This document shows positions 19,851 through 40,781 of a DNA stretch of 64,000 nt, piece after piece. Below the pieces are notes generated by a model. That model worked only from the letters and a program-made list of their open reading frames with translations, did not search any database and was not told where the DNA came from. The position numbers and the translations under genes are program-made. Numbering within the stretch: the first letter of the stretch is position 1; each line of letters begins with the position of its first letter. Source of the stretch: Sinomonas cyclohexanicum (GTDB lineage Bacteria > Actinomycetota > Actinomycetes > Actinomycetales > Micrococcaceae); contig NZ_AP024525.1 in NCBI RefSeq assembly GCF_020886775.1, positions 3,658,001 to 3,722,000 of the forward strand, in the 5' to 3' direction.

Positions 19851-21577
19851 CTGAGTCGTGCCACTTGCCTTAGTGACCTGCAATGAGTCCAAGCGTTGTC
19901 AGGATTTCCTGAGCTGTCGGGGGAATGTTGGGCTCGAGGGTGAGGCGTTGGCCGTTGACCTCGATTGTTGCCGAGCGGACGGGACGCAGCGTCTGGACGA
20001 GCTTCTTGATGCTCACGCCGGTGGCGTCCTGGAGGTGGCGGGCGATCGCGAGGGCCGCGAAGACCACGGTGAGGTGGGCCTCGATCGCCTCGCGCTGGTG
20101 GTGGAAGACGGGCCGGGCCTTCAGGTCGGACTTGGTCATGCGGAACGACGCCTCGACCGCCCAGAGGTCGTGATAGGCGCCGATCACCGCGCTGCCGCTC
20201 ATCGTTGCCTCGGGCAGGCTGGTCACGTAGCCCTTGAGCCCTGCGAGCTGGCGGGCCCGTTCGATGGTGGTCTGGTCCAGGGCCTTCTCGGCGCCGGTGA
20301 CCTTGAGGAACCTCGCCTTCTTCAAGGGAGTGGCGCCGGCGGCGATGCGTTCGGCCTTCTCGACCATGAGGTTGATGGTGCGCCGGTCGCGCTTGGCCCG
20401 CTTGAACGAGTACTGGTAGACGATCCGCCGCTCCCGCGCGTCCTTCCCGGTTCCCAGCGTCCTGACGGATTCGAGGATCTGCCCGTCCTCGAACCAGTCC
20501 CCGTGGGCTTCGAAGTGCTCGGCGAGGTCATACGGGGCCTTGGTCAGGCGGGAGCCGACGATGAAGGAGAACCCGGCGTCCTCGAGCGCGTTCAGGTTGC
20601 CGGCCGAGAGCATCCCGGCGTCGGCGACCACGACCATGTCCGTGACCCCATGCCTCTCCTGGAACGCCTTCAGCACCGGCACGAGGGTGGTGGTCTCGGC
20701 CTTGCGCCCGTCGAAGAGGTGCACCTCCAGCGGGAACCCGCCCGGGTCCACCAGCAGCCCGACCTGGACCTGCGGGTCCACGCGGTGCTCCTTGCTCATC
20801 CCGACCCGGCGCAGCTCGTCCTCGTCCTCGTTCGTGAAATGCAGGGTGGTCACGTCATACATGACCATCGCCGCAGGCCCTGTAGAGCGGACCGAGTGCG
20901 CGAGGCAGGCCTTGGCGATGATGTCGCGGTAGTCCTGCCTGCTGCACCGCTGCAGACAGCGGAACACTGTGCGCAGTGCGGGGGCCCTCACCCCGATCTC
21001 TTCGAGGACCCGGAGGGTGTCGGCCTTGGAGGTGGGCTCAACGAGCCTTGCGAGCACCAGGGATCTGAACGCCTCGTCGTCGAGGACATCGAATCCCAGA
21101 CGGGAGTACGCCTGGGCCAGGACGTCCCAGAGCACCAGCGATGCCGTTGCCACCACGCGCCCGCCGCCGGCTACGAGCCGTGGGCGCCCGCCGGGAGCGG
21201 CTACCGGCAACGAGGCAGCCGCTGTCCAGTCAGCGACGTCCTCGGTGCGCACCTCTACGCGGGGCAGCGGGCCGAGATCCAGCGTCCCCTGGCCGGGCCG
21301 GAGCCGATCGCGTGCCAGGTCCAGCAGCAGCGCCAGCTCGGCATCGGTATGGGCAGAACCCACATGATCGACCTCGACCACCTGGCCCCGGTCCTTGGCC
21401 ACGATCTGGACAGCGACCGCGCCCGAGGCCGTCCTGACCTTGCGCACGAACCTGGAAGCCACCCCCTGAGGCTACCTTTCGACAGGTTCTTAGTAACCAA
21501 ACCGTCCGACCGCAACAAAGAAACCGCAGGTCAGAGCACCATCAGCGAAAATCCGTCAACCGAGTGGCACGAGTCAG
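19851..21577 (-). mobile_element. IS1634-type insertion sequence (IS4-like group), 1727 bp
   Basis: Bounded by imperfect 17-bp inverted ends: CTGAGTCGTGCCACTTG at 19851-19867, and CTGACTCGTGCCACTCG read on the minus strand from 21577 to 21561 (15/17 match). It contains one transposase gene and is flanked by an identical 16-bp direct repeat. IS1634 of Mycoplasma is known for unusually long and variable target duplications, which agrees with the 16 bp here. The element lies exactly between the stop codon of the GntR gene and the MFS side, so it interrupts no frame. Confidence 0.9.
19870..21462 (-). CDS. IS1634-family DDE transposase
   Basis: A 530-aa DDE transposase. The first catalytic Asp is in AMVMYDVTTLHF, the second in MVVVADAGMLS, and the Glu lies in DLWAVEASFRMTKSDL (the YREK-like region of IS4/IS1634 elements). 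The C-terminal block HLTVVFAALAIARHLQ is also typical. GTG start at 21462. The frame is full length and undamaged, so the element may still be active. Confidence 0.9.
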   Translation of the reverse strand: MASRFVRKVRTASGAVAVQIVAKDRGQVVEVDHVGSAHTDAELALLLDLARDRLRPGQGTLDLGPLPRVEVRTEDVADWTAAASLPVAAPGGRPRLVAGGGRVVATASLVLWDVLAQAYSRLGFDVLDDEAFRSLVLARLVEPTSKADTLRVLEEIGVRAPALRTVFRCLQRCSRQDYRDIIAKACLAHSVRSTGPAAMVMYDVTTLHFTNEDEDELRRVGMSKEHRVDPQVQVGLLVDPGGFPLEVHLFDGRKAETTTLVPVLKAFQERHGVTDMVVVADAGMLSAGNLNALEDAGFSFIVGSRLTKAPYDLAEHFEAHGDWFEDGQILESVRTLGTGKDARERRIVYQYSFKRAKRDRRTINLMVEKAERIAAGATPLKKARFLKVTGAEKALDQTTIERARQLAGLKGYVTSLPEATMSGSAVIGAYHDLWAVEASFRMTKSDLKARPVFHHQREAIEAHLTVVFAALAIARHLQDATGVSIKKLVQTLRPVRSATIEVNGQRLTLEPNIPPTAQEILTTLGLIAGH

Positions 21578-21593
21578 GCCGGCCGGGTCAGAC
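21578..21593. repeat. Right target-site duplication of the insertion sequence
   Basis: GCCGGCCGGGTCAGAC, identical to 19835-19850. It contains the TCA that is the GntR stop codon on the minus strand. Confidence 0.85.
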
Positions 21594-22220
21594 GACACTG
21601 GCGATGTACCGGCCGAAGTTGCGCACGTGCGCATCCATGAGCGAGCCGGCGCGCTCGGGGTCCTTCGCGAGGATGGCCCTGAGGATCGGGGCCAGCTCCC
21701 GGATGTGGCCGACGACGAGCGGTCGCCTCTCGAGGACCAGGAGCCAGATCCGGGTGGAGAGGTGCCCGTACTGGCGCAGGGTGTCCTCGAGGTGGCCGTT
21801 GCCGGTGAGGGCGTAGATCACGTTGTGGATGGCGAGGTCTAGGCGCATGAGGTCGCCCTGGTCCACCTTCGCCTCGTCGATGGACTCCACGAGACCCAGG
21901 TACCGCTCGACCTCGGGCCTCTGGGCCTCCCGCAGGCTCTCCGCTGCCAGCCGCGCGCCGACGGGCTCGAGGATCTGCCGCACCTGGCCCACCTCAGAGA
22001 GGTCCGTGAGGTCGATCGGGGCGGCGAACGATCCCTTCCGCGGCTGCGTGACCACGAGCCGCTCGTGCTCGAGCCGGTGCAGGGCCTCGCGGATGGGCGT
22101 GCGGCCCATCTGCATCTCCTTGGACAGCTGCGACTCGTTGATCGACTCGTTGGGCCGGATGTCCAGCATGATGAGCCGGTCCGCGATCACCCGGTAGGCG
22201 AGGTCCGCAAGCGATTCCAC
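21588..22220 (-). CDS. GntR-family (FadR subgroup) transcriptional regulator
   Basis: A 210-aa regulator. The winged helix-turn-helix covers residues 1-70 (LSKEMQMGRTPIREALHRLE is the recognition helix region) and an all-helical FCD ligand domain follows, with metal-site type residues in LDLAIHNVIYALTGN. GTG start with GGAGG ten bases upstream. The insertion sequence abuts its stop codon. The FCD group usually senses small organic acids; the nearby MFS and NCS1 genes are the most plausible targets. Confidence 0.85.
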   Translation of the reverse strand: MESLADLAYRVIADRLIMLDIRPNESINESQLSKEMQMGRTPIREALHRLEHERLVVTQPRKGSFAAPIDLTDLSEVGQVRQILEPVGARLAAESLREAQRPEVERYLGLVESIDEAKVDQGDLMRLDLAIHNVIYALTGNGHLEDTLRQYGHLSTRIWLLVLERRPLVVGHIRELAPILRAILAKDPERAGSLMDAHVRNFGRYIASVV

Positions 22221-22344
22221 GGGCGGCTCACCTCCACTCGTCCTCGAGAGCCCAAGGACTCAATGTACCGGCACCGGCCGGGAACGGAAGCGATGCAGGA
22301 CGGCGGGTGGTCAGCTTATTGAAGCACGCGAACGTATCGCCGCG

Positions 22345-23811
22345 TCACGCGGACGTAGTCAAGAGCGCTTCTACACGATCACGCTGGGCCATGTCACCCG
22401 AAATAGCCAGTACCGCAGAACCGGCATGGGAGTAGCGATCGAGATGCTCTTTCAGTCGCTTTGCCACAGCAAACGATTGCCAAGGTGAAACTGCATTGCC
22501 GACCTGAGTGTACTGCGGGACTTCCACGCGCCGACGATGTGCGCCCGTGGTCTCCTTGCCCAAGAATTCGAAATTGTCGGGGAAGCCCTGAAAGCGAGCC
22601 ATCTCTCGGACAGTAAAGGTCCGAGACTCAGCCGGATGCACGTAATCATCTGGCAGCGAGACGACAGTCCGCGCGGGCCGCTCCGGGTCAAGCGCCTTCT
22701 GGCTGTGCTTCTTTGTACCCAGCTGCAGCATGATCTCGAGGAGCCGTTCCTCATCCGCGACCACCACCCCACGGTCGGTTGCGGACGATCTCAAGACTAC
22801 GGGATACCGCACGTCTTGAAGGAATGGTCGGGCGATATCTACCGCTCCTTCAGGGTTCGCAGCGATCCGACCTAGAATAGTTCGATCCACGCCAGCCTGC
22901 TGCATCCACCTATACAGCGAGAACCGGCGCGTGACCCGCTCACCGTGAGTGCGGCGTTGCTGGTTTGGCGCCAGATCCCCAAGCTTTCGATCAACGACCT
23001 CGCTAAACAGGCTAAGCCCCTTAAGGTACTGGAGATTTCGGTCGCTTCCGGGGATCAGGTCCCAGTTTGTGAGGTCGGCGATTGCGTCGCGGACCGTCCA
23101 GACGTCGGCTCGGTCCACAGTTGGCACCGGCGCCAAGTTTGGGATTGAAGCTACCTCGTCTCGAAACGCGGACTGCCACACCTCTTCCGAGACAGTGACT
23201 CGCAGGGAGTCCGCGATGTCTGAGCGTAGCGCGATAAGCATGAGCCGGGGACGATGCTGAGGCGCACCGTAGTGCATCGCGTTGACTTGCACGGGCTGGA
23301 CTCTGTAACCATAAGAGCCCCTCGTACTCAGGGCTTTGCGGAGCTGGGAGAAGGAAGACTCCTCGCCACGCTCAAAGCTGTTTCCCATTCCAAGCACATT
23401 CTCAATCACGACGGCCTTGGGCTGGGTGAACGCCACGAAATCGAGGTACTCCCAAGCGAGACGATTGCGGATGTCATCCTTGTTGCGCCGCCCAGCCATC
23501 GAGAACCCCTGGCATGGCGGCCCTCCCACGACAACATCGAGCTCTGCCGCCGCGAACACAGACATCACTTCGCGATCCTCGAGCACGTCAAGGAGTGGAC
23601 GAACGATGACCTTGCTCGAAGCCTGTTCAGAAAGCGGTGAGGAGACGTAGCGATCCCACACTCGGGGATCGGCGGCATCGCCGACGTAATTGTGGAAGAA
23701 CGTGCGTGCGGCCATGTCCGACTTCTCGACAGCAGCGACTAGCTCGCCTCCAGCGCGCTCCATGCCCAGGGAAAGGCCGCCGCAGCCCGCGAACAGATCC
23801 ACGAACTTCAT
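22345..23811 (-). CDS. C5-cytosine-specific DNA methyltransferase
   Basis: 488 aa with all main m5C methyltransferase motifs: I (VDLFAGCGGLSLGMERAG, residues 4-21), IV (GGPPCQGFS, catalytic Cys100), VI (ENV at 137-139), VIII (PQHRPRLM), IX and X (QVGNAVSP near 436). The region between VIII and IX, which normally contains the target-recognition domain, is long. It is last in a four-gene minus-strand block, 83 bases after the HerA-type gene. It would mark host DNA with 5-methylcytosine; the site is unknown. No separate restriction gene is adjacent, so the partners upstream are the candidate effectors. Weak ribosome site; lower GC than the flanks. Confidence 0.9.
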   Translation of the reverse strand: MKFVDLFAGCGGLSLGMERAGGELVAAVEKSDMAARTFFHNYVGDAADPRVWDRYVSSPLSEQASSKVIVRPLLDVLEDREVMSVFAAAELDVVVGGPPCQGFSMAGRRNKDDIRNRLAWEYLDFVAFTQPKAVVIENVLGMGNSFERGEESSFSQLRKALSTRGSYGYRVQPVQVNAMHYGAPQHRPRLMLIALRSDIADSLRVTVSEEVWQSAFRDEVASIPNLAPVPTVDRADVWTVRDAIADLTNWDLIPGSDRNLQYLKGLSLFSEVVDRKLGDLAPNQQRRTHGERVTRRFSLYRWMQQAGVDRTILGRIAANPEGAVDIARPFLQDVRYPVVLRSSATDRGVVVADEERLLEIMLQLGTKKHSQKALDPERPARTVVSLPDDYVHPAESRTFTVREMARFQGFPDNFEFLGKETTGAHRRRVEVPQYTQVGNAVSPWQSFAVAKRLKEHLDRYSHAGSAVLAISGDMAQRDRVEALLTTSA

Positions 23812-23894
23812 GACTCGAACATATCTACGAACACCATCTCTTGATTCTCACACAATCGCCCCGGACGCGTCCAGGCAACACGCGACGGCCCAGC

Positions 23895-26800
23895 TTACAG
23901 CCGATACAACTCGTAGTACGGAGTGACCCTCACCAACCTCGGCTCTGGACAACCGAAAGAGTGGTAGAGCACTTGATGCTTGTCCAGCGAAGGGATCCGA
24001 TCCGCCGTCTTCTCTGCCACCCCCTTCAGGCCCAGAGCTCCTAGCTGCTTTACGGTGACGTTTGGCACACGGTGGATCACCCACGTCCTGAGAGGTTCCC
24101 CATAGTTGTGCTTGCCTGTGTCGAAGTGGGACAGGTACTGGCTTGAGAGCACCACGCCGAATCCGAACTGGCGCCCCTGGAGCATGAGGTCCATCAGCAC
24201 CGAGAAGTTGTACCGCATGATATTGACCGCCTCGTCCACCACAAGAAAGGACTTGAGGTAGCGCAACTGGGGATCAGCGCCCTGAAATGGCGGCTTTGGC
24301 GAACGAATCATATAGTCGAAGTATAGATTGAGAAAGAGCGCAACAATCGCATTTTTAGCGTCCTGATCCTGGCCCAGCTCGTTCAGCGCGACGACAATGA
24401 CGCGACCCTCTAGGAGCTCGCCAAACGAACTTAGATTAGTTCGGTCATAGTCGAACAATTCACCGTAGACAAACGTCTCGAGGATCGCCGAGACGGAATC
24501 CGGCTTCCCCTGTTCGTCTAGGTACAATTCGAGGACCTCGGCGAGGGTGGGCTCCTTCTGGCCCGGCCGTTCGAAGAGCTCTCGGATGACCTTCTTCAGC
24601 ATACTGGATTGAACGGGTCCAATACCGCTATAGATCTTCGACAGAATGTCAACGAACGCGGCTGCCTGCTGATGCGGCTTTCGCGCATACTCGTCGGTCA
24701 CCGGCATGAAGACGTTCAGCGGCATCTTAAACGGACGGAGAACCTTTCCGTCGACGCGTTCCAAGAACTCGCCGCCTTGGAAGTCTCCCTTGTAATCAAA
24801 AATCAGCGATGAAGTTGGTTCGTTTGGCTGGGTCTTGAGAGCCTGAGAGCGAATCTGAGCGAGAAGGGCCTTCACGAACTCAGTCTTGCCCGTGCCCAGA
24901 TCGCCGACGATTCCAATGTTCATCTGAGTGAGCGCTGTGTTGCTGGGCCAGAAATCAACCGGCGCCTTGCCGATCGAATCCAAAGCGTAACCGATCCGGA
25001 CCTTCACACCGCCATCGCGAATCCCAGATGCCTGTGGATCGGGCACGACAGTGGACGATGAGCTTGTGGATGAATCAGATTTCAGGTGAACTCTGGATAC
25101 ATCATGGGGGCCTGTCACTCTGTCGGGCACTTCGTCGACATCGTCATGGTGAGCGCCAAACCGACCTTCACCGCCGGCGTCGTCGTCCATTGCTTCCGCA
25201 GTGCGTCGGCCTCTGTCGAGGAGCTTCGCCCATGATGCGACGAGCCCGGACTTCTCGTTATCAAGAGCCGAGAACACAGCACGTGTATCAGCAACAAGTC
25301 CGACAGCCTCTAGTTCGGAATTTCCGACGTCGCCCACATAGTATGCATCCTCACCAAACTCGGTGCCTGTGTAGTCGAAGTATGTGAGGATCGGCTGGCC
25401 GGCGCGTACGGTGATCTCTCCTCGGGCTACCCGGCCTAGTCTTGCAGAAAGTGCGGTTGAATACTCATCCGCGACTGGCTTCAGCTTAATGGCGGTTTCC
25501 ACCAAGGTGGCCAATGCATTGAACCACAGTGCGCGGTCAGCCCGCTGGTCGAGCGACCCTGCAGTTCGTCCTATGTCTTCGATCACGCGATAGCTTGAAG
25601 CGAGCTGTTCAAGAGCTTCGGCGAAGGCGGCTGAGTCCGGGCTGGGCAGCGGATGGCCGGGACCGGACGCCGTCTTCAAGCCATAACTCTTGATCTCAAC
25701 CGGGGATATGACCAATTCTTCATCGTCGAGCTCTAGTAGCAGTAGGTCCGCACGCCGGTTCGTTTGACCGTGTTCTGACTTCCCACCAGCCAAGATTCGC
25801 AAGAAATAGTCCGCCGCATCGACGGGGATGACCAGCCTGGTGGCCTTATGAGCGGGAGCTCGGTCGAAGAGCTCGAACGCTAGATAGAAGCCGAGAGCGC
25901 CCGCCACGTGCGTTCCCCCAAGAGATAGCAGTGATGCCAAGCCAACTCCCCGGCGTCCGAGGGTGCGCTGAACTCTGGCCTTGAGTCCTCCTTGGCAACC
26001 AGTCGTGCCTGCGGACTTGCCCGAAGCCCTGGTGAGCAAGTGTTCGAGGTCATGTCCGAAGGCATCAGGCACGCGTGCAATGGAAATGTGAGGCCGTCGC
26101 TCGACCAGGGCCGGGGCGTTCTTGGATTTCTCAAAGATCGGGGGGCGCCACTCCCACAACATGTTTTGGCCGGCGCTGTACTGGTCCATGAGCCCGGCCA
26201 TCACCGCCGGATTCACGTGGGTTTCGCCGAGTACGGTCCAATCCGCCGACTTGTCGGCCAGCAGCGTGGAAATCATCCCCGCTTGGATCGCAGGCGCAGT
26301 CCCTTCTACCTGCCTCAGAGCAGTCAGGAAGGCCGAATCGCCCTGTTCGTTAGGCACCCCGGGATACGAAGGGCTCTCGTAGGCCCCGAATGCTTGCCCG
26401 TGGGCTTCGAACCTTCTGAGAGGAACCGCAGCGATGGCGCCTTTGGCCACCTCCCCCGGACCTATGCGCGCCGTGATTCCAGCTCCTTCGAGGAACCGCA
26501 CGTTGCACGCAACCGGGCGACTCGGGTCGGGCCGATAACGAGACCAGGTGACGAGCAAGTCCCTGTTCTCCCGGACCAAGTCGGTCACGTCGTCGCGGGG
26601 TGGAGCACCCTCTCGAAGCACTGAGTCGTACACGCGAATGCCGCCTTGGAATGACTCGGCAGACGTCCACTCCTGAGCCATTGACAACACAGCACTGTCA
26701 ATCTCGGTAACACGGTTAGCGGGCTGCGACGCGGCGAGGTCAACAGTCAGAGTCGTGGCATGAGGATGCATGCGGCGAAACGACCGCAGGGCCGCGTCGA

Positions 26801-29363
26801 CACTCGCGCCATTCAGGCCCGTGGCCGCCGTCCCGGGAGCCAGATAGTCGCCGATCCGCCCGGGAGACTTCAGGGGAATGCCCTCATCCGACCCAGCGGG
26901 CACAAGTACGGACCACCCAAGAAAGATCTGGTCCTCGCCGGCATCGGATGGGACTGCGATCATGCGGCGGGTCTTGCGGGGCCCCGGACCAGCGATGGGA
27001 AAGTTCCAGCCCTCAAGTGATCCGAGCAGGTCCTTGGCGTTTTGTGCTTCATCCAACACCGACTCACTGCCCGCGAGCCATGCCAATCTCAGGGGATGCA
27101 GTGGGCTCAGAAGGACCGTGCTGCAGTGATAGCCAGTCGTAATGTCCCAGACGCTGATCGAGAACGGATAGGCTGCCCAGAAGTGGATCGCGTCATTGGG
27201 TATTTCGGCGGCTGCTTCTACGAGGTCGCCGTAGGCGTTAAGGTATTCGTCAAGACGCGAATTTCCCCATAGTGACCTGAATGAAGTACGAGAGGGCCAT
27301 TCAAATTCGACACTGGCATTCCCTGGTTGCCTGCCCAGAAGCTTCTCTAGCCCCAGATTGTCTAATGCCTCACGGAACCTGTTCGCTTCAGGGCCATTCA
27401 CAAACGGATCGTCGAAGGTCAGGTTCATCATATGTGGCCGGAGCAGGCTCTCAGGCAGATCAGCCATCAAGACAGAACCACCCCAGTGCGGCCTCAGTTC
27501 GCTAAGTGAGCACGGGCGGTCGGACGGCATCGCGGCATGGCCCAGAGCCTGCCGGAACTCAGCGTCTCCGGACGTCAGCGCTCGACCGAGCATCGATTCG
27601 AAGAGTCCGCGGATCGACAGCCCGATTTCTGGCTTAGGGCGCTCGGCGATCACCTGCTCCTTCAGGGCAGCGGCAATGAGCGCTGATTGCTGACCCTTGC
27701 TCGCCGCGACAGGGCGAATCCGGAAGGTGCGGTCTTCCACAGTGAAATCGCTCTCGGCGCTTGCCGCGAACTTGATCGTCCGCAGTTCACGGATCACCGG
27801 GTGGGCTGGTACTGGGTTCCCATTCAGGGCTACGTCCGCTTCGGAGTCCGAGCACCAAATGAGCGCCTGATATCCCCGCGTGTTGGGCACCACCTCTGCG
27901 GTTGCCTCCAGAGCGCCGTCATCCGACGGCTCAACAGCCGTCGCCCGGCCGAGAGCTCCGTCAGACCGAACGGGCGCCACGACCATCAACGCGTTGTCTG
28001 GCGAGAGGAAGTAAACCTTGTGCCCGAGCTTCGCAGGAAGGAACCCGGAAAGGGCGTGCGAACGGTCAACGTCCAGGGTTATGGAGGCCGGTCTGAATTG
28101 CGCCGCGTTGCGTCCGGTGCCCGCCGCGCGGTGAAACTGTCCTCGTAGCCGAAGCCGCCCTGTCTCTACAGAAACCCCGTGGGTCTCCCACGCACCAGCT
28201 CCTTTCGGGGTCACGGTGACGCTGCATAGGCTCTTTGGGATCTCCGCTTGCGCGGACCCCGTCCAGGGAACCGATATTTCGATCCCAGGCGACCTCGGCT
28301 GCCGGCCCTCAGCGGGTCTAGTTGTAAGCGGAACAACATAGGGCGCCGCTGGTGTGTCGAAGTCAAGAAGAAGGCTACCCCCATCGGCGAGTGCCAAGGT
28401 GAGACGGATGTCTGATGCGTTCCCGGACGGATCTATGAAGTCGGCAACTGTGATGCGTGCGAGCACGTCGAGGCGTTCTGGATTATTGTCCACCCACTCG
28501 ACGAGGCCAGACTTCGGATCCCCAGTTCGTAGGACCACGTCGTTGAACCCGTCCGTTGAGACCAACGAAAACGACGGGTCCTCCGTCCGTACTGCGATCT
28601 GCGCCAACGACTGCTTCAGGGAAGACTCGTCCGTCCAGTACTCGTGGAAAGCATCTGCGAGCTCGCGAATGGGGCCGGCCCCACTCGCGGTCGCCTTGGC
28701 GCTCCCGTCGGGGCGGGGCAAGCCGAATGCTGCATAGCACCATTGCTGAATGAATCCATCAAGGCTCAGGGCTGAGCCTTCGACGACAGAGGAGTGAAAC
28801 CGCTTGGCCAGATTCTGCAGTCCCGTCTCAACGTGCCGGAACCACCTCACGTTCCAGCTTCCGACGCCTTGCTGGTCTGCGACGTGAAGAGCCCGGAGTG
28901 TTTCGAGGCACCGCTCGAGGAAGGCCACAGCATCGCTGTTCGTATCAAGGTCCTGACCTGCAAGACCTGCTAGCGCTTGCAGCAGCACCCTAGACATCTC
29001 GTGAAGCCCAAGCCTGCTGTCGGCTGCGTCGGGGTAGCTCGGCCCCGCAACCTCGGTGAAGGTCTGAAGGAACGATGCAAGATCAGGCTGTCGGCCGAAG
29101 ATAACCGCCAGACGGTCACCCTGGCGGTAGCGTACTGATTCCTTTGCTGAGACCATCACCACGTCGTCAGCAACGGACTGCTCACTGCCGGCAGCATTGA
29201 CAAGGATGGCAAACGGGCTCGAAGAACTGGGTCGCCGCTTATTTGCCGCCCTTACAATCTGCACGGCCGACTCGAACTCGATTCCGTCGGGCAAGTGAAA
29301 GTAGCTGAGCCCGTTGATTCCCGCCAGCGCTCGTCCAAGTGCTCCGGCGAGACTTATCGTCAT
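23895..29363 (-). CDS. Giant DptH-like protein: PD-(D/E)xK-like segment plus C-terminal HerA/FtsK-type ATPase
   Basis: About 1822 aa. The N-terminal half (1-900) is not recognised. Around residues 1165-1230, RRADLLLLELDDEELVISPV followed by EIKSYG has the D...ExK arrangement of PD-(D/E)xK nucleases. After a Ser/acidic linker (about 1400-1450) comes a HerA/FtsK-type ATPase: Walker A GIVGDLGTGKTEF near 1485-1495, SSLIFDYKGDF after it, and Walker B LKSFLVVDEAVN. Size and C-terminal architecture resemble DptH of phosphorothioate restriction systems. The ATG at 29363 is preferred; a TTG ten codons earlier would overlap the upstream stop. Role in DNA cleavage or translocation is inferred. Confidence 0.7.
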   Translation of the reverse strand: MTISLAGALGRALAGINGLSYFHLPDGIEFESAVQIVRAANKRRPSSSSPFAILVNAAGSEQSVADDVVMVSAKESVRYRQGDRLAVIFGRQPDLASFLQTFTEVAGPSYPDAADSRLGLHEMSRVLLQALAGLAGQDLDTNSDAVAFLERCLETLRALHVADQQGVGSWNVRWFRHVETGLQNLAKRFHSSVVEGSALSLDGFIQQWCYAAFGLPRPDGSAKATASGAGPIRELADAFHEYWTDESSLKQSLAQIAVRTEDPSFSLVSTDGFNDVVLRTGDPKSGLVEWVDNNPERLDVLARITVADFIDPSGNASDIRLTLALADGGSLLLDFDTPAAPYVVPLTTRPAEGRQPRSPGIEISVPWTGSAQAEIPKSLCSVTVTPKGAGAWETHGVSVETGRLRLRGQFHRAAGTGRNAAQFRPASITLDVDRSHALSGFLPAKLGHKVYFLSPDNALMVVAPVRSDGALGRATAVEPSDDGALEATAEVVPNTRGYQALIWCSDSEADVALNGNPVPAHPVIRELRTIKFAASAESDFTVEDRTFRIRPVAASKGQQSALIAAALKEQVIAERPKPEIGLSIRGLFESMLGRALTSGDAEFRQALGHAAMPSDRPCSLSELRPHWGGSVLMADLPESLLRPHMMNLTFDDPFVNGPEANRFREALDNLGLEKLLGRQPGNASVEFEWPSRTSFRSLWGNSRLDEYLNAYGDLVEAAAEIPNDAIHFWAAYPFSISVWDITTGYHCSTVLLSPLHPLRLAWLAGSESVLDEAQNAKDLLGSLEGWNFPIAGPGPRKTRRMIAVPSDAGEDQIFLGWSVLVPAGSDEGIPLKSPGRIGDYLAPGTAATGLNGASVDAALRSFRRMHPHATTLTVDLAASQPANRVTEIDSAVLSMAQEWTSAESFQGGIRVYDSVLREGAPPRDDVTDLVRENRDLLVTWSRYRPDPSRPVACNVRFLEGAGITARIGPGEVAKGAIAAVPLRRFEAHGQAFGAYESPSYPGVPNEQGDSAFLTALRQVEGTAPAIQAGMISTLLADKSADWTVLGETHVNPAVMAGLMDQYSAGQNMLWEWRPPIFEKSKNAPALVERRPHISIARVPDAFGHDLEHLLTRASGKSAGTTGCQGGLKARVQRTLGRRGVGLASLLSLGGTHVAGALGFYLAFELFDRAPAHKATRLVIPVDAADYFLRILAGGKSEHGQTNRRADLLLLELDDEELVISPVEIKSYGLKTASGPGHPLPSPDSAAFAEALEQLASSYRVIEDIGRTAGSLDQRADRALWFNALATLVETAIKLKPVADEYSTALSARLGRVARGEITVRAGQPILTYFDYTGTEFGEDAYYVGDVGNSELEAVGLVADTRAVFSALDNEKSGLVASWAKLLDRGRRTAEAMDDDAGGEGRFGAHHDDVDEVPDRVTGPHDVSRVHLKSDSSTSSSSTVVPDPQASGIRDGGVKVRIGYALDSIGKAPVDFWPSNTALTQMNIGIVGDLGTGKTEFVKALLAQIRSQALKTQPNEPTSSLIFDYKGDFQGGEFLERVDGKVLRPFKMPLNVFMPVTDEYARKPHQQAAAFVDILSKIYSGIGPVQSSMLKKVIRELFERPGQKEPTLAEVLELYLDEQGKPDSVSAILETFVYGELFDYDRTNLSSFGELLEGRVIVVALNELGQDQDAKNAIVALFLNLYFDYMIRSPKPPFQGADPQLRYLKSFLVVDEAVNIMRYNFSVLMDLMLQGRQFGFGVVLSSQYLSHFDTGKHNYGEPLRTWVIHRVPNVTVKQLGALGLKGVAEKTADRIPSLDKHQVLYHSFGCPEPRLVRVTPYYELYRL

Positions 29364-29373
29364 GTCAGCCAAT

Positions 29374-30849
29374 TCAGAAGGCCCTTTCAACAATCACTGC
29401 ATTGTCTGCATCCGCGCTGCCGCGCGCCATACCCGCTCGCTCCAGAAGGGCGACGAGATCTCCAAGCTCGGGGCGCATTCCCAGACGGGATAGATCAGCC
29501 AGGACATCACCAACGGTGCAGTGGCGAGATCTCCCGCGGCATGCGAGGCTAGCTACCACCGTGACCCATTCTGTCCCCGGATCGACTAGAACGAAGCGCC
29601 GTCCGTGGGCCTTCAACACCCCAAAATAGTCAGTGTAGGGTCCGCTAGCTTCTCGAACCTGCAGCCCGTACTTAACGGTCTCATAAACTGTCTTGCTCTT
29701 GTCGGTCCCGTCAGCAAGGGATTTGACCAGCGCCTCGACGTGCCCCTTTTCGTCAGACAACTCTCGAAGAAAGTCAATGGCTGAGACGGCGGCGAGTGAA
29801 CGAGCTTTGGCATGCTCTTTCATCCGGGCGCCCAGATAGGTGCGCACCTTCTCTCCGCGACGCAGCCGATGCTTGATGAGCGAGGCAACATCGCGGGTCG
29901 TGACCGTCGCACGGCTCGACTGCCAGGGGAGCGGGGGACGTACGCTCGCGACCAACTCTGTGAAGGTTGCTGGCACTGATCTGCCTATAACCGCTGCTGC
30001 AATGCGTTCATACCAGGCCGCCTCCCACAGGAATCCAAGCCCCATGGTCAATCGGAGGACCGTAGTCGCCCAATCCACCCACACTCTCGCGGGAAGCGAA
30101 TCGACCCAGTCATCTGACGTCAAGGCAGACCAGACACGCGCGAACCACGAGTATGGAGTGTCGGGGAACAAACCTGCCCATTGCCTCCCCTCCAAGTGGC
30201 CGAGATCACCCGGCCGTCGCTCATAGCCGTCGGAGAGGATGCCCGTCATAAAAGCCCCGTCGATCGCCTGGAGAACGGGATCGTGGTCGAGGCGTCGGTC
30301 GACGGCCCGAAGCCAAAGCGCACTCGCCGACTGACCTTCTCGCTGCGACGAGTCGCTTCCCAACGCGAACATTGCTTCAAGGATCTCTGCGAAATCAGGT
30401 GGGTTTCTCTTGACCAGGACACCGCGAGCATCCTGAAGCAGCGCCAGTGAGGGGGACAGTGGGCTGGCGGGCTGATTCCCTGTTCGCTCGATACGAATGC
30501 CAAGAACGCTTCTCGCCACGGCGTCCCCGAGACTTTCCGGCGTTGACTCCGTGATCAGGGCCGTAGGCCGACCATGCTGAGCAAGCAACTCGCCAAGCTG
30601 GGCGAGCTTCTGGCCAGTGGGAAATGTAGATCTTACGTCGACGAACTTGCTCTGCTTTGCATCCGCCTGATACATGTACCCGGCCACTTTGCCGGTGCTC
30701 TTTTCGGCGCTTCCATCACCGATCGGAGGCGCATCCTGCCGGCGCTCGTAGGCCCGATGCGCAAGAGATGAAATCAAAAGCTCAGGCACTGAGAAATACT
30801 CCGGGCGGTTAAAGGGAAGCCTAAGGTATTCTGCCGATGGTACAGACAC
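29374..30849 (-). CDS. Unknown protein in the putative defence operon (DptG position), 491 aa
   Basis: Not recognised by motif. It starts MSVPSAEYLRLPFNRPEYFS, has no signal peptide or membrane helix, and looks alpha/beta with a helical C-terminal third; the C-terminal 70 residues (HCTVGDVLADLSRLGMRPEL and following) could be a winged helix. Its GTG start shares one base with the TAG stop of the upstream ATPase gene, and its own stop is ten bases from the ATG of the giant gene, so the three are translationally coupled. Size and central position match DptG, but I see no direct sequence proof. Confidence 0.6.
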   Translation of the reverse strand: MSVPSAEYLRLPFNRPEYFSVPELLISSLAHRAYERRQDAPPIGDGSAEKSTGKVAGYMYQADAKQSKFVDVRSTFPTGQKLAQLGELLAQHGRPTALITESTPESLGDAVARSVLGIRIERTGNQPASPLSPSLALLQDARGVLVKRNPPDFAEILEAMFALGSDSSQREGQSASALWLRAVDRRLDHDPVLQAIDGAFMTGILSDGYERRPGDLGHLEGRQWAGLFPDTPYSWFARVWSALTSDDWVDSLPARVWVDWATTVLRLTMGLGFLWEAAWYERIAAAVIGRSVPATFTELVASVRPPLPWQSSRATVTTRDVASLIKHRLRRGEKVRTYLGARMKEHAKARSLAAVSAIDFLRELSDEKGHVEALVKSLADGTDKSKTVYETVKYGLQVREASGPYTDYFGVLKAHGRRFVLVDPGTEWVTVVASLACRGRSRHCTVGDVLADLSRLGMRPELGDLVALLERAGMARGSADADNAVIVERAF

Positions 30850-33245
30850 TAGAATTCCCCCTGCGACTTCAGCGTCACGATTCTGCTTTCACGTCCGCTA
30901 ACGATTCGTATCTGAGTATCGGCCAGAACGTTGCTTCGAAGGTGCACCGCACGGATGCGTTCGAGTCGTGGCGACGTGGCGTCAACGAGATTAGTGACAC
31001 CCGCGTAATCATCAACGCACGCGAGAGCCTCCCTCACGAGTGCAAAATCGAGCGTCATTCGACCGAGCTCTTTCGCTTGACCTCGAAGTATCAAAACCGT
31101 CTGATCTGGTCCAACGGATTCGGTTTGCATCTCAAGACTCGGAAGCAACACAGCAAGCTTGGATGACTTCGCCCAGCCTAGAATCGGCTCCGCTCGACTG
31201 TCAAAGAGGGGCAACAGTGATTCGTCGGCGCCTTCGCCAGGACGTCGCTGTGGCCTAATCAGAGTGCGAAGCGCCTTCGCCAGACCATCGGGAATGTTTG
31301 GGCTGTGGAAGGCGGCGTCTAGAAGCACACCAACCTCGCGCCGGAACGCTGAAATGCCGTGGGCCATCGCGTACAGCCTCATGAGATACGAGCCGTACCA
31401 TGCGATGGCTTCCAGACGATCGCCCTCCTTGAGGGTGATGTCCTGCATCAGATCAACGTATGCGGAATCTAAGATCTCGTCGAAGTCATGTACGACGGAT
31501 CCCAGGATCCCCTCCTCGTCGCGGGTATGGAGATATGACAGAGGTGAGGTCTCGTCATAGTTGCCTGCAAACGCATCGTTAATAGGCGTTGCCCAACCCT
31601 GCGTGGGGTCAGTGGGAGCGTCACCAGGTATCGCATCCTTGACCGGATCCACCTGACTCATGAGACGCAAGACTGGGTCTCGGCGGGAGGCTTCGACCGA
31701 AGGGGTGCCGTATCCAGCACCAAAGATGCCCTGTATCCCGCGGAGACTTGCCAGTCGCCGCAACTTCTTGAACCGCTCCAGAGGGTCCCCTGTCGGCTGA
31801 TTGACGGCGATGAACTCGTCCAGTTCGTCTCGGCCCATCTGGCCGGGCGCGCTCCCAACGGCCACCCGACTCAACAGGCCCCAGAGCTCTCGATATGTGA
31901 ACCGCAAACCTGTGGCAATTTCGGCCGACCGCGCGAGACTCAATATGGCAGACCGTGCACTGGAGGACTGGAGCATGGCGATATTCCCCGCGATCGGGTT
32001 TGCTTCGTAGTGCCGTGCCCAATCGACTGTGGAGAGCATGTTGGAGACCTGCTCGATGAGGTCGTGTGCCGGAGTCGACCCGGGCGGCAGATTGGGCCGC
32101 TCGACAAGTCGGGTCACCTGAGCCCAGCCACTGGAAACTACTGTGTTGTCTTTGATTACGGTGCTCGGGGCACGCTCAAACAAGGAACATTCATCGACGC
32201 CCACGGCCAGTAGATGTGCCCGAGGGTGGCCAAGGTGCTCGAGGATGGCTGATCTGACCACTCTCGACCCCGACCGCGCTTCAACGCGCCACGCGGATTC
32301 CATCTCCGGGCTGTCTGCCAGCCAGCGGATGACGGCTGCGCCTGCTGTCCACTCTCCATGCGGCGTGTGCCGGCCGAGGGCCGACAACTCCTCGATAAGG
32401 ATTCCTCGGTTTATGCAAGCCAACAGGTGGATCGGCCGCGTTCCCGGCACCGTGGCTATTTGATCGACGTCTCCAGCCAACGGCGCGGGTGTCCCTGCGC
32501 GATTCCCGATCGTGGCATCGTTGATGATCAGGAGGTCCGCCGTGTCCCCGGCGTAACGGTACGACCGGTCCGCAAGTCCGTGCTCGTGCTGGCTCACGAG
32601 GCGCATACCTCGAACAGCGCGAGCGCTGGCGTGAGACTTCCCCGCGCCGGGCCCCCCGACAAGGAACAGGAGTCTGGGGAGACTGCCCGGTCGCGTGGGC
32701 CCGCGGAACCATTCGAGCGCTTCATCGACGCCGGCAGCGCTGGCTGCAACGGGCCACAAGTCATCGACTGAGTGATCAGGTCTTGCCGCCACATCCGTGC
32801 CACCAGTTGCACGATCCCAGAATCCAGAGAGGAGTGAGAGCGCCGAAGGTGGATTGTCGACGGACTCAGACAAGGTTCTTCCTCCTGAACGTGGTAGTGC
32901 GCCTATGTCTTCCGGCGTTTTGCCCTCCGACGGCGCGCGAAACCCCTCAAGTCTCGTCTCGGCCGCCCTTTGCACAGCGACGCGAAGCGATTCTTGGACA
33001 TGGCTTCGGGGCTTGTAACCGTCTACGTACGGATGGCCCAGTTCTGAAAGAACATGACTGACGTTGCAGAACTTGAACTCGATGGATCCCTTGCTTCGCC
33101 CGGTGCGCTCTTGAACGCCGCGATTGTGCTCAATCTTCGAATAAGACTCGCCGAGGAGCTCTCGCTGCAGCATCGAAAAATATGCGTCGACCAGAACCCG
33201 CGTTTCGTCGTCCGTCCACGGGCCACCAGAACCTTCAAACCCCAT
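30849..33245 (-). CDS. DptF-like P-loop ATPase with an extra N-terminal domain
   Basis: 798 aa. Residues about 8-95 (PWTDDETRVLVDAYFSMLQREL...SKGSIEFKFCNVSHVL...GYKPRSHVQESL) form a domain I know from the N-terminus of uncharacterised restriction-type (HNH or DUF3883-containing) proteins. A P-loop LVGGPGAGKSHAS lies near residues 193-205, then LLIINDATIG and HLLACINRGILIEEL, a pattern reminiscent of DptF NTPases. The C-terminal 400 residues are helical and unassigned. First gene of the operon; ATG start with a weak ribosome site. Mixed GC and codon use unlike the flanking chromosome suggest transfer. Confidence 0.65.
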   Translation of the reverse strand: MGFEGSGGPWTDDETRVLVDAYFSMLQRELLGESYSKIEHNRGVQERTGRSKGSIEFKFCNVSHVLSELGHPYVDGYKPRSHVQESLRVAVQRAAETRLEGFRAPSEGKTPEDIGALPRSGGRTLSESVDNPPSALSLLSGFWDRATGGTDVAARPDHSVDDLWPVAASAAGVDEALEWFRGPTRPGSLPRLLFLVGGPGAGKSHASARAVRGMRLVSQHEHGLADRSYRYAGDTADLLIINDATIGNRAGTPAPLAGDVDQIATVPGTRPIHLLACINRGILIEELSALGRHTPHGEWTAGAAVIRWLADSPEMESAWRVEARSGSRVVRSAILEHLGHPRAHLLAVGVDECSLFERAPSTVIKDNTVVSSGWAQVTRLVERPNLPPGSTPAHDLIEQVSNMLSTVDWARHYEANPIAGNIAMLQSSSARSAILSLARSAEIATGLRFTYRELWGLLSRVAVGSAPGQMGRDELDEFIAVNQPTGDPLERFKKLRRLASLRGIQGIFGAGYGTPSVEASRRDPVLRLMSQVDPVKDAIPGDAPTDPTQGWATPINDAFAGNYDETSPLSYLHTRDEEGILGSVVHDFDEILDSAYVDLMQDITLKEGDRLEAIAWYGSYLMRLYAMAHGISAFRREVGVLLDAAFHSPNIPDGLAKALRTLIRPQRRPGEGADESLLPLFDSRAEPILGWAKSSKLAVLLPSLEMQTESVGPDQTVLILRGQAKELGRMTLDFALVREALACVDDYAGVTNLVDATSPRLERIRAVHLRSNVLADTQIRIVSGRESRIVTLKSQGEF

Positions 33246-33288
33246 GCCAAGAACCTACAGGACCGTGAGGACTCTGTTGTGCGCGACC

Positions 33289-33302
33289 GTCAGCCAGCTG
33301 AC
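33289..33302 (-). promoter_or_regulatory. GTCAGC-CA-GCTGAC palindrome upstream of the defence-like operon
   Basis: A perfect 6-bp dyad with a two-base centre, 44-57 bases upstream of the first ATG, in the only gap large enough for the operon promoter. It may be an operator; no dedicated regulator gene is adjacent. Confidence 0.45.
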
Positions 33303-33374
33303 TACCCGAATTTACACACGTCGGGGTGAACACACCCGCTGACGCTCTTGGGGTGGGACCGGCAACCCTTCGGC

Positions 33375-33590
33375 TTAGCCCTTCCCCTGCTCCTTCTTCC
33401 GCCGCTCGCTCTCCTCGCGGTGGCGGCGGATCTGGGCCTGGATGAGCTGCTCCTCCTCGGTGAAGCGGAGGGCGTTGGCGTCATCGACGGAGTCGCGCGC
33501 GCCGTCGACCTCCTGCGCGGCGGGGTACTCGACCTCCTCCTCACGGGACTCGTCGGAAGGCTCGGGGGCGGTGGCACGCTGCTCAGTCAT
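33375..33590 (-). CDS. Small acidic/charged hypothetical protein, 71 aa
   Basis: Starts MTEQRATAPEPSDESREEEV and ends in a charged helix (TEEEQLIQAQIRRHREESER RKKEQGKG). It has chromosomal codon usage and no membrane segment. A GTG two codons earlier is also possible. Function is unknown; the C-terminal helix could form a coiled coil. Confidence 0.6.
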   Translation of the reverse strand: MTEQRATAPEPSDESREEEVEYPAAQEVDGARDSVDDANALRFTEEEQLIQAQIRRHREESERRKKEQGKG

Positions 33591-33639
33591 GGCCACACTG
33601 TAGACCCTGAAACCTCCGTTGTGTGGCTAGGCTCGCACC

Positions 33640-34491
33640 ATGAGCGACTCCCCCACCATCGGCATCACCGGCGTCACCGGGACGATCGGCGGGCACGTGG
33701 CCCGGCTTCTCTCCAACAGCGGGCTCCCCCTCGTGCTGCTCCCCCGGAACCCGGCGAAGGCACCCACGCTGCCGCGCGCCGTCGTGCGCCCGGCCGACTA
33801 CGGCGACCGCAACCTCTGCGAGCGCTCGCTCGAAGGCATCGAGACGCTCTTCATGGTCTCCGGCCGAGAGAGCGCGACCCGCATGGACGAGCACCGCAGC
33901 TTCGTCGATGCCGCCCAGGCGGCGGGCGTGCGGCACGTCGTCTACACGTCCTTCATGGGCGCCGCGCCGGACGCGACGTTCACCCTCGCCCGCGACCACT
34001 TCGCCACCGAGGAGTACATCAAGTCCGCCGGCCTCGCCTACACGTTCCTGCGCGACTGCCTCTACTCCGACTTCCTCGAGGCGATGGTGGGGGACGACGG
34101 CGTGATCCGCGGCCCCGCGGGCAGCGGCGCCGCCGCCGTGGTCGCCCAGGCGGACGTGGCCAGGTGCGCGGCCGCCGTCCTGCGCGACCCCGCCACCCAC
34201 GCCGGCGTCACCTACACCCTCACCGGCCCCGAGGCGCTGACCATGGTGCAGGTCGCCCACATCATCTCCGCGGTCCGCGGCCGCACGGTGACGTTCCACC
34301 ACGAGACCGTCGCCGAGGCGTACGAGTCGCGCAAGAAGTGGCCCGCGCCGGACTGGCAGTACGACGCCTGGGTCTCCACCTACACCGCCATCGCGGCCGG
34401 CGAGATGGAGCACGTCTCCGACGATGTCGAGACCATCACCGGCCAGCGCCCGATGAGCCTCAAGGAGGTGCTGCGGGCAAATCGAGGCTGA
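33640..34491 (+). CDS. NmrA-like NAD(P)-binding family protein
   Basis: A 283-aa atypical short-chain dehydrogenase. The GITGVTGTIGGHVARLL motif at residues 8-24 binds NAD(P), and VYTSFMGAAPDATF plus YTFLRDCLYSDFL match the NmrA/NAD(P)H:quinone-oxidoreductase-like (QOR2/YtfG) group. The active-site YxxxK of classical SDRs is absent. The 3' end overlaps the convergent gene by 32 bases. It has high GC and chromosomal codons, so it lies outside the transferred block. Confidence 0.8.
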   Translation: MSDSPTIGITGVTGTIGGHVARLLSNSGLPLVLLPRNPAKAPTLPRAVVRPADYGDRNLCERSLEGIETLFMVSGRESATRMDEHRSFVDAAQAAGVRHVVYTSFMGAAPDATFTLARDHFATEEYIKSAGLAYTFLRDCLYSDFLEAMVGDDGVIRGPAGSGAAAVVAQADVARCAAAVLRDPATHAGVTYTLTGPEALTMVQVAHIISAVRGRTVTFHHETVAEAYESRKKWPAPDWQYDAWVSTYTAIAAGEMEHVSDDVETITGQRPMSLKEVLRANRG

Positions 34492-36385: not shown

Positions 36386-36400
36386 GTACGGTGGCCGTAC
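36386..36400 (+). promoter_or_regulatory. GTACGG-TGG-CCGTAC dyad upstream of first YCII gene
   Basis: A perfect 6-bp inverted repeat with a 3-base centre that ends eight bases before the GGAAGGA ribosome site of the gene at 36421. Confidence 0.35.
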
Positions 36401-36420
36401 AACCGGCGGAAGGAATGGCC

Positions 36421-36726
36421 ATGACCCGCTTCCTCATCACCTATCACGGCTACCCCTACCCTGACATGGACGTCATCGCCAGCCAGCGGCGGGACTTCCG
36501 TGCCTGGGCCGAGAAGTCATTCGGACGGGCCATGGTGGACTTCGGCGCGCCGCTCTACGACGTCGGGCAGATATCGACCGCCGGCCCGCCGCACCCGCCG
36601 GTCGAGATCGACGGGTACACGATCATCGAAGCCCGTTCCGTGTCCGAGGTCCGGGCCCTCCTCGAGGGCCACCCCTTCCTCGCACTCGGCGGCACCATCC
36701 AGATCAACGAGTGCCTCGAGGTGTGA
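36421..36726 (+). CDS. YCII-related family protein, paralogue 1
   Basis: 101 aa beginning MTRFLITYHGYPYPDMDVIA; ferredoxin-like dimeric fold of the YCII/PhnB-like family. The core VDFGAPLYDVGQ and YTIIEARSVSEVRALLEGHP are shared with two further copies at 38783 and 40479. GGAAGGA (36408-36414) fixes the start at 36421. Family members are small enzymes or ligand-binding modules of largely unknown function, often found near sigma-factor systems in actinobacteria. Confidence 0.8.
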   Translation: MTRFLITYHGYPYPDMDVIASQRRDFRAWAEKSFGRAMVDFGAPLYDVGQISTAGPPHPPVEIDGYTIIEARSVSEVRALLEGHPFLALGGTIQINECLEV

Positions 36727-38643: not shown

Positions 38644-38667
38644 CCCCTGCGCCCCTGCAGTACCGCA

Positions 38668-38703
38668 GCGCACGACGGCGGGTGCCCACCCGCCGTCGTG
38701 CGC
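38668..38703 (+). terminator. Perfect 16-bp terminator hairpin
   Basis: GCGCACGACGGCGGGT (38668-38683) and its exact complement (38688-38703) with a GCCC loop, 25 bases after the stop of the membrane protein gene. Confidence 0.85.
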
Positions 38704-38782
38704 TTGCCATGTCTTCGGCTGAGGCCTACAGCGCGGCGAGGTTCGGCGGTAGGTTTACGGCACCGACGGCGGAAGGATGGCC

Positions 38783-39085
38783 ATGACCCGGTTCCTGATC
38801 ACCTACCACGGCATGCCGTATCCGGAGCGGGACGTCATAGAGCGCAGCCGCGGCGCCCTGCGCAAGTGGGCCGAGGAGAGGCTCGGCGGCGCCCTGGTGG
38901 ACTTCGGCGCCCCCGTGCTCCTGGGCGGGCAGATGTCCACCGGCCAGCCTGAGGACGCCGTGGAGATCGACGGGTACACGGTCATCCAGGCCCGTTCCCT
39001 CTCCGAGGCGCGTGACCTTCTCTCCGACCACCCGTACCTGGCCCTCGGCGGGACGCTGCAGATCAACGAGTGCCAGGAAGTCTGA
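38783..39085 (+). CDS. YCII-related family protein, paralogue 2
   Basis: 100 aa, MTRFLITYHGMPYPERDVIE, closely similar to the gene at 36421 along its whole length (both end with LALGGT(I/L)QINEC.EV). GGAAGG at 38771-38776 sets the start at 38783. The subtilisin gene begins 22 bases after its stop, so the two probably share a transcript. Confidence 0.8.
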   Translation: MTRFLITYHGMPYPERDVIERSRGALRKWAEERLGGALVDFGAPVLLGGQMSTGQPEDAVEIDGYTVIQARSLSEARDLLSDHPYLALGGTLQINECQEV

Positions 39086-40352: not shown

Positions 40353-40478
40353 GCCGGCCGGAGTCCACGAGGGCGGCGCCTGCGCCCGCGCCCGCGCCGC
40401 CCAGCCCACGCACGCCGCCGCCCTGCGCGACGAGGCTGCGATAGTGTGACGGCACGCACACCGGAAGGACGTCTCCCC

Positions 40479-40781
40479 ATGGCCCGTTTCCTCGTCACCT
40501 ACCACGACATGCCCCACCCCTCCCCGGAGGTGGTCGCCGCCAACCGCGCCGCCTTCCATGCGTGGGCCGATACCGCCCTCGGGGACGCCCTCGTGGACCC
40601 GGGCGCCCCCGTCTACCTCGCGGGCCAGCTGGCCAAGGGCGCGCCCGCCCCGCATACCGAGATCTCGGGCTTCTCGATCATCGAGGCGAAGTCACTCGCG
40701 GACGCGCGAGCGCTCCTCGCGGACCACCCGTACCTCGACCGCGGCGCCACCATCCAGATCGACTGGTGCCTCGAGGTCTGA
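40479..40781 (+). CDS. YCII-related family protein, paralogue 3
   Basis: 100 aa, MARFLVTYHDMPHPSPEVVA; more diverged than copies 1 and 2 but with the same blocks (LVDPGAPVYLAGQLAKG, FSIIEAKSLADARALLADHP, QIDWCLEV). GGAAGGA at 40463-40469. Convergent with the DipZ-like gene. The third copy within 4.4 kb, which indicates local duplication followed by insertion of other genes, or selection for the cluster. Confidence 0.8.
   Translation: MARFLVTYHDMPHPSPEVVAANRAAFHAWADTALGDALVDPGAPVYLAGQLAKGAPAPHTEISGFSIIEAKSLADARALLADHPYLDRGATIQIDWCLEV

What the first reader, a model, noticed from the sequence alone, without database searches (positions are those of the whole stretch)
22345..33245. Candidate defence system: DptFGH-like module combined with a C5-cytosine methyltransferase
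Seen: four same-strand genes (798-aa P-loop ATPase, 491-aa unknown, 1822-aa protein with PD-(D/E)xK-like motif and C-terminal HerA/FtsK-type ATPase, 488-aa m5C methyltransferase). The first two overlap by one base, the third starts 10 bases later and the methyltransferase 83 bases after that. GC is lower than around it (row 30841-30900 has 31 G+C of 60; a chromosomal row at 47161-47220 has 48 of 60). Known: Dpt systems use DptF, DptG and DptH in this order and size to cut DNA lacking phosphorothioate made by DndA-E. Inference: here the self mark would be 5-methylcytosine, since no dnd gene is visible in the window. I know no described system with this exact set.
Basis: partly seen in the sequence, partly recalled or inferred. 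Interest (0 to 1): 0.88.

Follow-up and report, generated by a model that had tools for sequence, protein, structure and literature searches.

The report
Restriction complex paired with cytosine methylation
A four-gene bacterial defence block joins a large DNA-travelling nuclease complex, related to one that normally spares sulphur-marked DNA, with an ordinary cytosine methylase, which suggests that such complexes can change the chemical mark they read as self.

Summary
In detail: four same-strand genes (F-G-H-MTase, 22345-33245) in a low-GC block. H is DptH/DndH-like (PD-(D/E)xK motif, HerA/FtsK ATPase); F is a remote DptF relative; G could not be linked to DptG. DndF/G and SspF/G models miss F and G in the three members scanned. 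I read 11 loci of this branch, found by homology to G or H, never to the methylase: all 11 carry an adjacent C5-cytosine MTase, in varied positions, and 7 carry Vsr. A twelfth, SspFGH-like locus has both. Of 7 comparator FGH loci none shows one, though two were read only upstream. DndC is absent from 8 of 8 host genomes tested. In two lineages the MTase appears exchanged for another m5C subfamily while FGH stayed. Genus relatives carry other cargo at the site. Best reading: a restriction-modification system whose FGH nuclease spares m5C-marked DNA. My paper searches found no such pairing. Function is untested.

The parts
30849..33245 (-). F subunit (798 aa): N-terminal domain matching PADLOC PDC-S36 (res 7-100), then a P-loop kinase/ATPase (GGPGAGKS at 197, INDATIG around 242, CINRG around 277) with a lid region; remote DptF relative
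   Evidence: PDC-S36 E 1.9e-32; no DndF/SspF hit; hhalign to DptF 88.9%, E 2.4e-6
29374..30849 (-). G subunit (491 aa), no known family; candidate DNA-binding subunit by position only
   Evidence: no convincing hit; one NCBIfam chance-level hit, E 0.037; no PDB hit; 75% to proteobacterial G over 363-482; none to DptG; model of low confidence, mean pLDDT 47.9
23895..29393 (-). H subunit (1832 aa from TTG; 1822 aa from ATG at 29363): mid part with LSPLHPLRLAW motif, PD-(D/E)xK-type motif (RADLL...PVEIK 1214-1235), C-terminal HerA/FtsK-type ATPase (Walker A GDLGTGKT 1497)
   Evidence: DndH E 1.2e-62 over 1450-1810; PDB 7es4 DptH, E 1.9e-46
22345..23811 (-). C5-cytosine DNA methyltransferase (488 aa), the only PF00145 gene found in the genome
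   Evidence: (PF00145 E 6e-51)
21588..22269 (-). conserved flank A of the insertion site (GntR-type regulator by eye), shared with relative L052 and over 134 bases with L014; not part of the system
33376..34478 (+). conserved flank B of the insertion site (NmrA-like gene by eye), shared with 6 of 6 fetched genus relatives and L014; not part of the system

Best explanation
This is a restriction-modification system. The MTase puts 5-methylcytosine on host DNA at some sequence motif. F, G and H form a complex like DndFGH: H carries the HerA/FtsK translocase and a PD-(D/E)xK nuclease that nicks or cuts, G contacts DNA, and F is a nucleotide-binding regulatory subunit. The complex loads on DNA, travels on it with ATP and damages it unless m5C in its recognition context stops loading or ATP hydrolysis, as phosphorothioate is reported to do for DndFGH. 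Vsr, present in many relatives, would repair the T:G mismatches that heavy m5C marking creates. Shown here: gene content, homology of F and H, catalytic motifs, constant linkage, absence of DndC. Inferred: the complex, its activities, and that m5C is protective.
For: The m5C MTase is adjacent in 12 of 12 loci collected by homology to G, H or a DndH model, never by the MTase. None shows in 7 comparator FGH loci, 5 of them read on both sides. Its position varies: downstream in the window, L014, L017, L027 and G815; upstream in L015, L025, L026, L032, G048 and G066; convergent in L016. In L016 (ArMYb) and G048 it appears exchanged for another m5C subfamily (30-37% to every other partner) while FGH stays in the family; L016 FGH groups with L017 at support 1.000, but its MTase lies outside that clade. 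Vsr lies at 8 of 12 loci. DndC is missing from 8 of 8 host genomes and found in the E. coli H240 control. F and H are related to DptF and DptH. The nuclease motif is kept in 12 of 12 H proteins. PT is reported to repress DndFGH ATPase and translocation (PMC11662687, passages). Relatives carry restriction-like cargo at the same site.
Against: No experiment and no methylome. G is not recognisable as DptG by sequence. FGH genes without an adjacent m5C gene exist, and Rakesh et al. argue that DndFGH is standalone (PMC10853773, sections read). Two of the comparators, L057 and L058, were read for only 0.8 and 0.5 kb beyond H, so a downstream MTase there is not excluded. L014, L016 and L027 have no Vsr hit, and none was seen by eye in the window's ORF lists. 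The link of the window's nuclease region to DptH was lost on realignment. The AlphaFold models are of low overall confidence.
Confidence: 0.73

Rival explanations
1. FGH is a standalone counter-invader complex, as proposed for DndFGH; the MTase is an accessory that counteracts phage modification or serves another function of the island.
For: Rakesh et al. describe DndFGH as standalone and usually decoupled from modification (PMC10853773). Comparator loci such as L028 (Massilia) have FGH with neither m5C MTase nor annotated dnd genes in the 25 kb read.
Against: 12 of 12 linkage with varied position and apparent MTase exchange is hard to explain without selection for an m5C partner.
Confidence: 0.11
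2. m5C licenses or activates the complex instead of protecting DNA, as phosphorothioate does for SspE; FGH attacks incoming DNA by another cue.
For: SspE depends on PT marks for its activity (PMC8092258, passages), so a marking gene beside a nuclease need not mean protection.
Against: DndFGH and SspFGH, the nearest relatives, are reported to be harmful to unmarked cells (PMC11662687, PMC8092258, passages).
Confidence: 0.08
3. Hitch-hiking: an orphan or type II m5C MTase that happens to sit in a defence hotspot.
For: The locus is a cargo-exchange site. Plasmid relatives of this MTase at about 32-35% sit in other contexts: beside a MvaI/BcnI-type endonuclease in Vibrio, and without FGH in Euzebya.
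Against: Only 80 of 149 genomes of the order have any PF00145 match, yet it is adjacent at every locus of the family read, in three bacterial classes. The window genome has no other PF00145 gene.
Confidence: 0.06
4. A phosphorothioate-dependent FGH whose dnd or ssp genes lie elsewhere in the genome.
For: F and H are related to DptF and DptH.
Against: No DndC match in 8 of 8 host genomes, with a positive control. DndB, D, E and Ssp genes were not searched.
Confidence: 0.02

Closest known systems
DndFGH / DptFGH restriction module of phosphorothioate systems
   Same: F-G-H order and similar sizes; F P-loop core with aligned DAT and Asn-containing Walker B-like motifs; H with SP-x-HP motif and HerA/FtsK ATPase and a like nuclease motif (by eye)
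   Different: Not detected by DndF or DndG models; DndH models reach only the ATPase of the window H; m5C MTase, often Vsr, in place of dnd genes
SspFGH (partner of SspABCD)
   Same: Three-gene module with Walker A F and FtsK-like H (PMC8092258, passages). One locus, G066, matches SspF, SspG and SspH models and has m5C MTase plus Vsr
   Different: The window family hits no SspF/G/H model (L025 and L027); reported SspFGH reads single-strand PT
Type II R-M systems with C5-cytosine MTase and Vsr (recalled)
   Same: Same class of MTase; Vsr often linked
   Different: The restriction partner is a three-gene set of about 3,100 residues with a translocase-type ATPase, not a simple endonuclease
CxC/DndE-centred systems with cytosine methylases (PMC10853773)
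   Same: A Dnd-related module paired with a cytosine methylase instead of PT
   Different: That module is CxC ATPase plus DndE with HKD-helicase, not FGH
MADS (mad8 HerA) and HerA/FtsK capture systems
   Same: HerA-type ATPase; mad8 model hits the H ATPase (E 4e-16)
   Different: No other MADS component hit among the four window proteins (for the MTase only the best 25 of 62 families shown)

Membership tests
DndFGH / DptFGH | F, G, H genes adjacent in this order | tested here: met
DndFGH / DptFGH | F related to DptF | tested here: met
   hhalign 88.9%, E 2.4e-6 over 189-521; but no PADLOC DndF or NCBIfam hit
DndFGH / DptFGH | G related to DptG (triple winged helix) | tested here: inconclusive
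   no significant profile match; model mean pLDDT 47.9
DndFGH / DptFGH | H ends in a HerA/FtsK ATPase of the DptH kind | tested here: met
DndFGH / DptFGH | H has the DndH nuclease and mid domains | tested here: inconclusive
   nuclease motif in 12 of 12 H, SP-x-HP motif in 10 of 11 H of the branch by pattern and 3 of 4 DptH; DndH models reach the nuclease region in L025 but not in the window; alignment to DptH there lost on realignment
DndFGH / DptFGH | works with PT modification (dnd genes) | tested here: not met
   DndC absent in 8 of 8 host genomes; DndB, DndD and DndE not searched
SspFGH | matches SspF/SspG/SspH models | tested here: not met
   no hit for the window proteins; met only by G066
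m5C restriction-modification system | complete C5 MTase adjacent to restriction genes | tested here: met
m5C restriction-modification system | methylation protects DNA from the restriction component | not testable with these tools
   needs experiment

The most novel reading that the evidence does not exclude
FGH translocating nucleases are mark-agnostic effectors: separate branches have settled on phosphorothioate or on 5-methylcytosine, and within the m5C branch the methylase, and so probably the target motif, can be exchanged while FGH stays. The complex would sense the mark through a swappable interface, or read m5C itself in a loose context.
Probability: 0.35. Interest if true: 0.9.

Novelty: new variant of a known kind. 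Interest (0 to 1): 0.76.

Why it matters
How DndFGH tells self from foreign DNA is debated: only 10-15% of motifs carry phosphorothioate in the strains cited in PMC8092258 (passage), and DndFGH has been argued to be standalone (PMC10853773). A natural FGH branch tied to a plain m5C methylase offers a simple, easily manipulated mark with which to test mark reading by this class of complex, and it adds a system whose F and G the PADLOC, Pfam and NCBIfam models searched do not name.

Tried and rejected
Dnd dependence: made unlikely by the DndC search. Chance neighbour: made unlikely by the survey and base rate. Phage- or plasmid-borne close relatives of G: none found in viral contigs or plasmids. 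G066 as an ordinary member: its proteins match SspF/G/H models, so it is counted apart. The Vibrio HerA hits L030 and L035 lie with tra/mob genes; L036 and L037 show only a shorter ATPase ORF; none of the four has an F or G hit, and they were left out of all FGH counts. One of the 14 plasmid records (H3) was not fetched, as it is the same strain as H4. In L033 dptG is annotated in two pieces and H falls in two ORFs; it was left out of the protein profiles. A search for MADS papers gave two listings, not read. A search of plasmids with the H of G066 found no full-length relative. Structure: two AlphaFold jobs gave low confidence (mean pLDDT 47.9 and 49.0), so no fold is claimed. On re-checking the calls I weakened the comparator statement and the nuclease alignment, so confidence in the best explanation went from 0.75 to 0.73 and two rivals rose by 0.01.
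Full report
Observation. The four genes are present as described, on the - strand, tightly packed, in a block of lower GC.

Domains. The MTase is a C5-cytosine enzyme (PF00145) with its catalytic motifs. H ends in a HerA/FtsK-type ATPase that matches DndH models (E 1e-62, residues 1450-1810) and the solved DptH ATPase 7es4. Before it lies RADLL(x12)PVEIK, a PD-(D/E)xK-type motif; such a motif is found in 12 of 12 H proteins collected, and DptH of Massilia, Aliivibrio and E. coli H240 shows a like one by eye in the printed stretch (DDVL...LLPLEVK). The motif SPLHPxRLAW in mid-H is found by pattern in 10 of 11 H proteins of the branch (not in L014) and has a counterpart (SP/TP-x-HPL) in 3 of 4 DptH proteins; it may be the eroded methylase motif that Rakesh et al. 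describe for DndH (my inference). Profile comparison of H with DptH gave 100%, E 4e-47, over 1217-1851 without realignment, but only the ATPase remained in the realigned output; in the Rhizobium H, DndH models do reach the nuclease region (1210-1813), and the Micrococcales and proteobacterial H align from 761 on (E 8e-113). F matches PDC-S36 in its first 100 residues and no DndF or SspF model, but profile-profile comparison links its P-loop core and lid to DptF (88.9%, E 2.4e-6), with DAT and an Asn-containing motif aligned. It also gives 64% to the F of G066. G has no usable library match and no significant link to DptG; to the proteobacterial G it gives 75% over the C-terminus. The hhalign E-values are for single comparisons of small alignments (7, 4 and 4 sequences).

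Survey. Members were collected by homology to G, H or a DndH model, never by the MTase. G hit 2 of 394 genomes of the class and 3 of 396 of the order, the window included in each. In 84,980 species genomes a two-pattern scan gave 4 loci, one Sinomonas and three Arthrobacter; it is narrow and will have missed relatives. Viral contigs gave none. H hit 2 of 296 genomes of the phylum, and 14 plasmid records, of which 13 were fetched: 4 m5C-type FGH, 5 dptFGH-type, 4 other ATPases. A DndH model hit 3 of 396 genomes of the phylum, the third being G066.

Result. 12 of 12 loci (7 Micrococcales including the window, Rhizobium, Sinorhizobium, Shinella, Pseudoalteromonas, and G066) have F, G, H and an adjacent PF00145-type MTase. 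Vsr is at 8 of 12: L015, L017, G048, G815, L025, L026, L032, G066. L014, L016 and L027 gave no Vsr hit; the window was not searched with a Vsr query, and none was seen by eye in its ORF lists around the block. Comparators: five dptFGH-type plasmid loci (L028, L029, L031, L033, L034), read on both sides, and two actinobacterial loci found with an SspF model (L057, L058), whose G and H are judged by order and size and which were read for only 0.8 and 0.5 kb beyond H. None of the 7 shows an MTase by an HMM of the partner MTases. That HMM was built from the 12 partners, so its hits on them are by construction; the zero in the comparators is the informative part. L031 has an AlwI-type R-M pair with an adenine MTase beside it. 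The comparator set is small, and a downstream MTase in L057 or L058 is not excluded.

Partner exchange. Among Micrococcales, MTases of the window, L014, L015, L017 and G815 form one subfamily (53-72% between them), more alike than F and H in all ten pairs and than G in nine. Those of L016 and G048 are 30-37% to every other partner, although their F, G and H are ordinary members of the Micrococcales set (35-52%). In the FGH tree L016 groups with L017 (support 1.000); in the MTase tree it lies outside the clade that holds L017 (1.000). In both cases the MTase also sits in another place (convergent; upstream). I read this as exchange of the MTase with the demand for an m5C enzyme kept.

Modification genes. 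DndC (TIGR03183) is absent from 8 of 8 host genomes tested (the window, G048, G815, G066 and the four behind L014-L017) and found in E. coli H240 as control. DndB, D, E and Ssp genes were not searched; the genomes that go with the four plasmids were not tested.

Site. Sinomonas sp. R1AF57 (L014) holds the system beside the same flank gene. The window's flank gene at 33376-34478 is shared by six relatives fetched out of the 14 other genomes of the genus that were searched. They carry other cargo there: a helicase-like protein of about 1,050 aa in L049, L052 and L053 (with an HNH-type gene in L052), a broken version plus HNH in L050, an HNH-type gene in L051, and a DUF262/HNH-like gene in L048 (names by eye). 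In L052 both flanks match and 7.7 kb stand in place of the window's 11.1 kb. This is a cargo-exchange site with restriction-like genes.

Structure. Models of G and of H residues 560-1440, built on five sequences each, have mean pLDDT 47.9 and 49.0; only the part of H around the nuclease motif reaches about 57-87 in most blocks. They were not used for a fold claim.

Literature. PMC10853773 (sections 11, 18-22, 25 and passages read; supplement not) gives the DndFGH architecture and calls it standalone, lacking an inbuilt modification module; it reports cytosine methylases with CxC-DndE systems. PMC11662687 (passages) reports that DndFGH is a 2:2:1 complex with translocation-coupled nicking, that PT represses its ATPase, and that it harms unmarked cells. 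PMC8092258 (passages) describes SspFGH. PMC12707154, PMC12839542, PMC5608340 and PMC12429752 were seen in passages only. Searches for the combination showed no paper describing FGH with an m5C MTase; I saw their listings and opened the papers named here. The library holds open-licence papers only, and the 1,798 DndFGH taxa of PMC10853773 may include some of these loci.

Verdict. A real, recurrent gene set: an FGH-type nuclease-translocase with an m5C methylase, a new variant of a known kind. The mechanism (m5C as protective self mark) is the best inference, at about 0.73.

Noticed in passing
L024:5415-15599: Actinobacterial genome G066 has an MTase-F-G-H-Vsr run whose F, G and H match SspF, SspG and SspH models, so m5C pairing also occurs in the Ssp-type branch.
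   Followed up: partly
window 30849-33245 (F residues 7-100): N-terminal domain of F matches PADLOC candidate PDC-S36 (E 1.9e-32); the F of G048 (641 aa) starts without this region.
   Followed up: partly
window 22269-33376; L048-L053: Cargo-exchange site in this genus beside an NmrA-like gene, with different restriction-like genes in different species.
   Followed up: partly
window 19870-21462: A transposase-like gene (IS1634 type by eye) lies just beyond the flank of the block.
   Followed up: no
window 36391-36726, 38777-39085, 40446-40781: Three small paralogous genes with TRFLITYHG-like or ARFLVTYHD-like starts (YCII-like by eye) lie close together.
   Followed up: no
window 38667-38700: A repeat of about 34 bases, matching on both strands at several places (so palindromic), recurs many times in this genome and its genus.
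   Followed up: no
L027:7746-8240: In Pseudoalteromonas HL-AS1 a small extra gene sits between G and H, and H is shorter (1623 aa).
   Followed up: no
L057, L058: Two actinobacterial FGH-like loci have a very long F (1411 and 1439 aa; NERD-like start by eye) and no m5C MTase in the 19.9 kb read, which ends just after H.
   Followed up: partly
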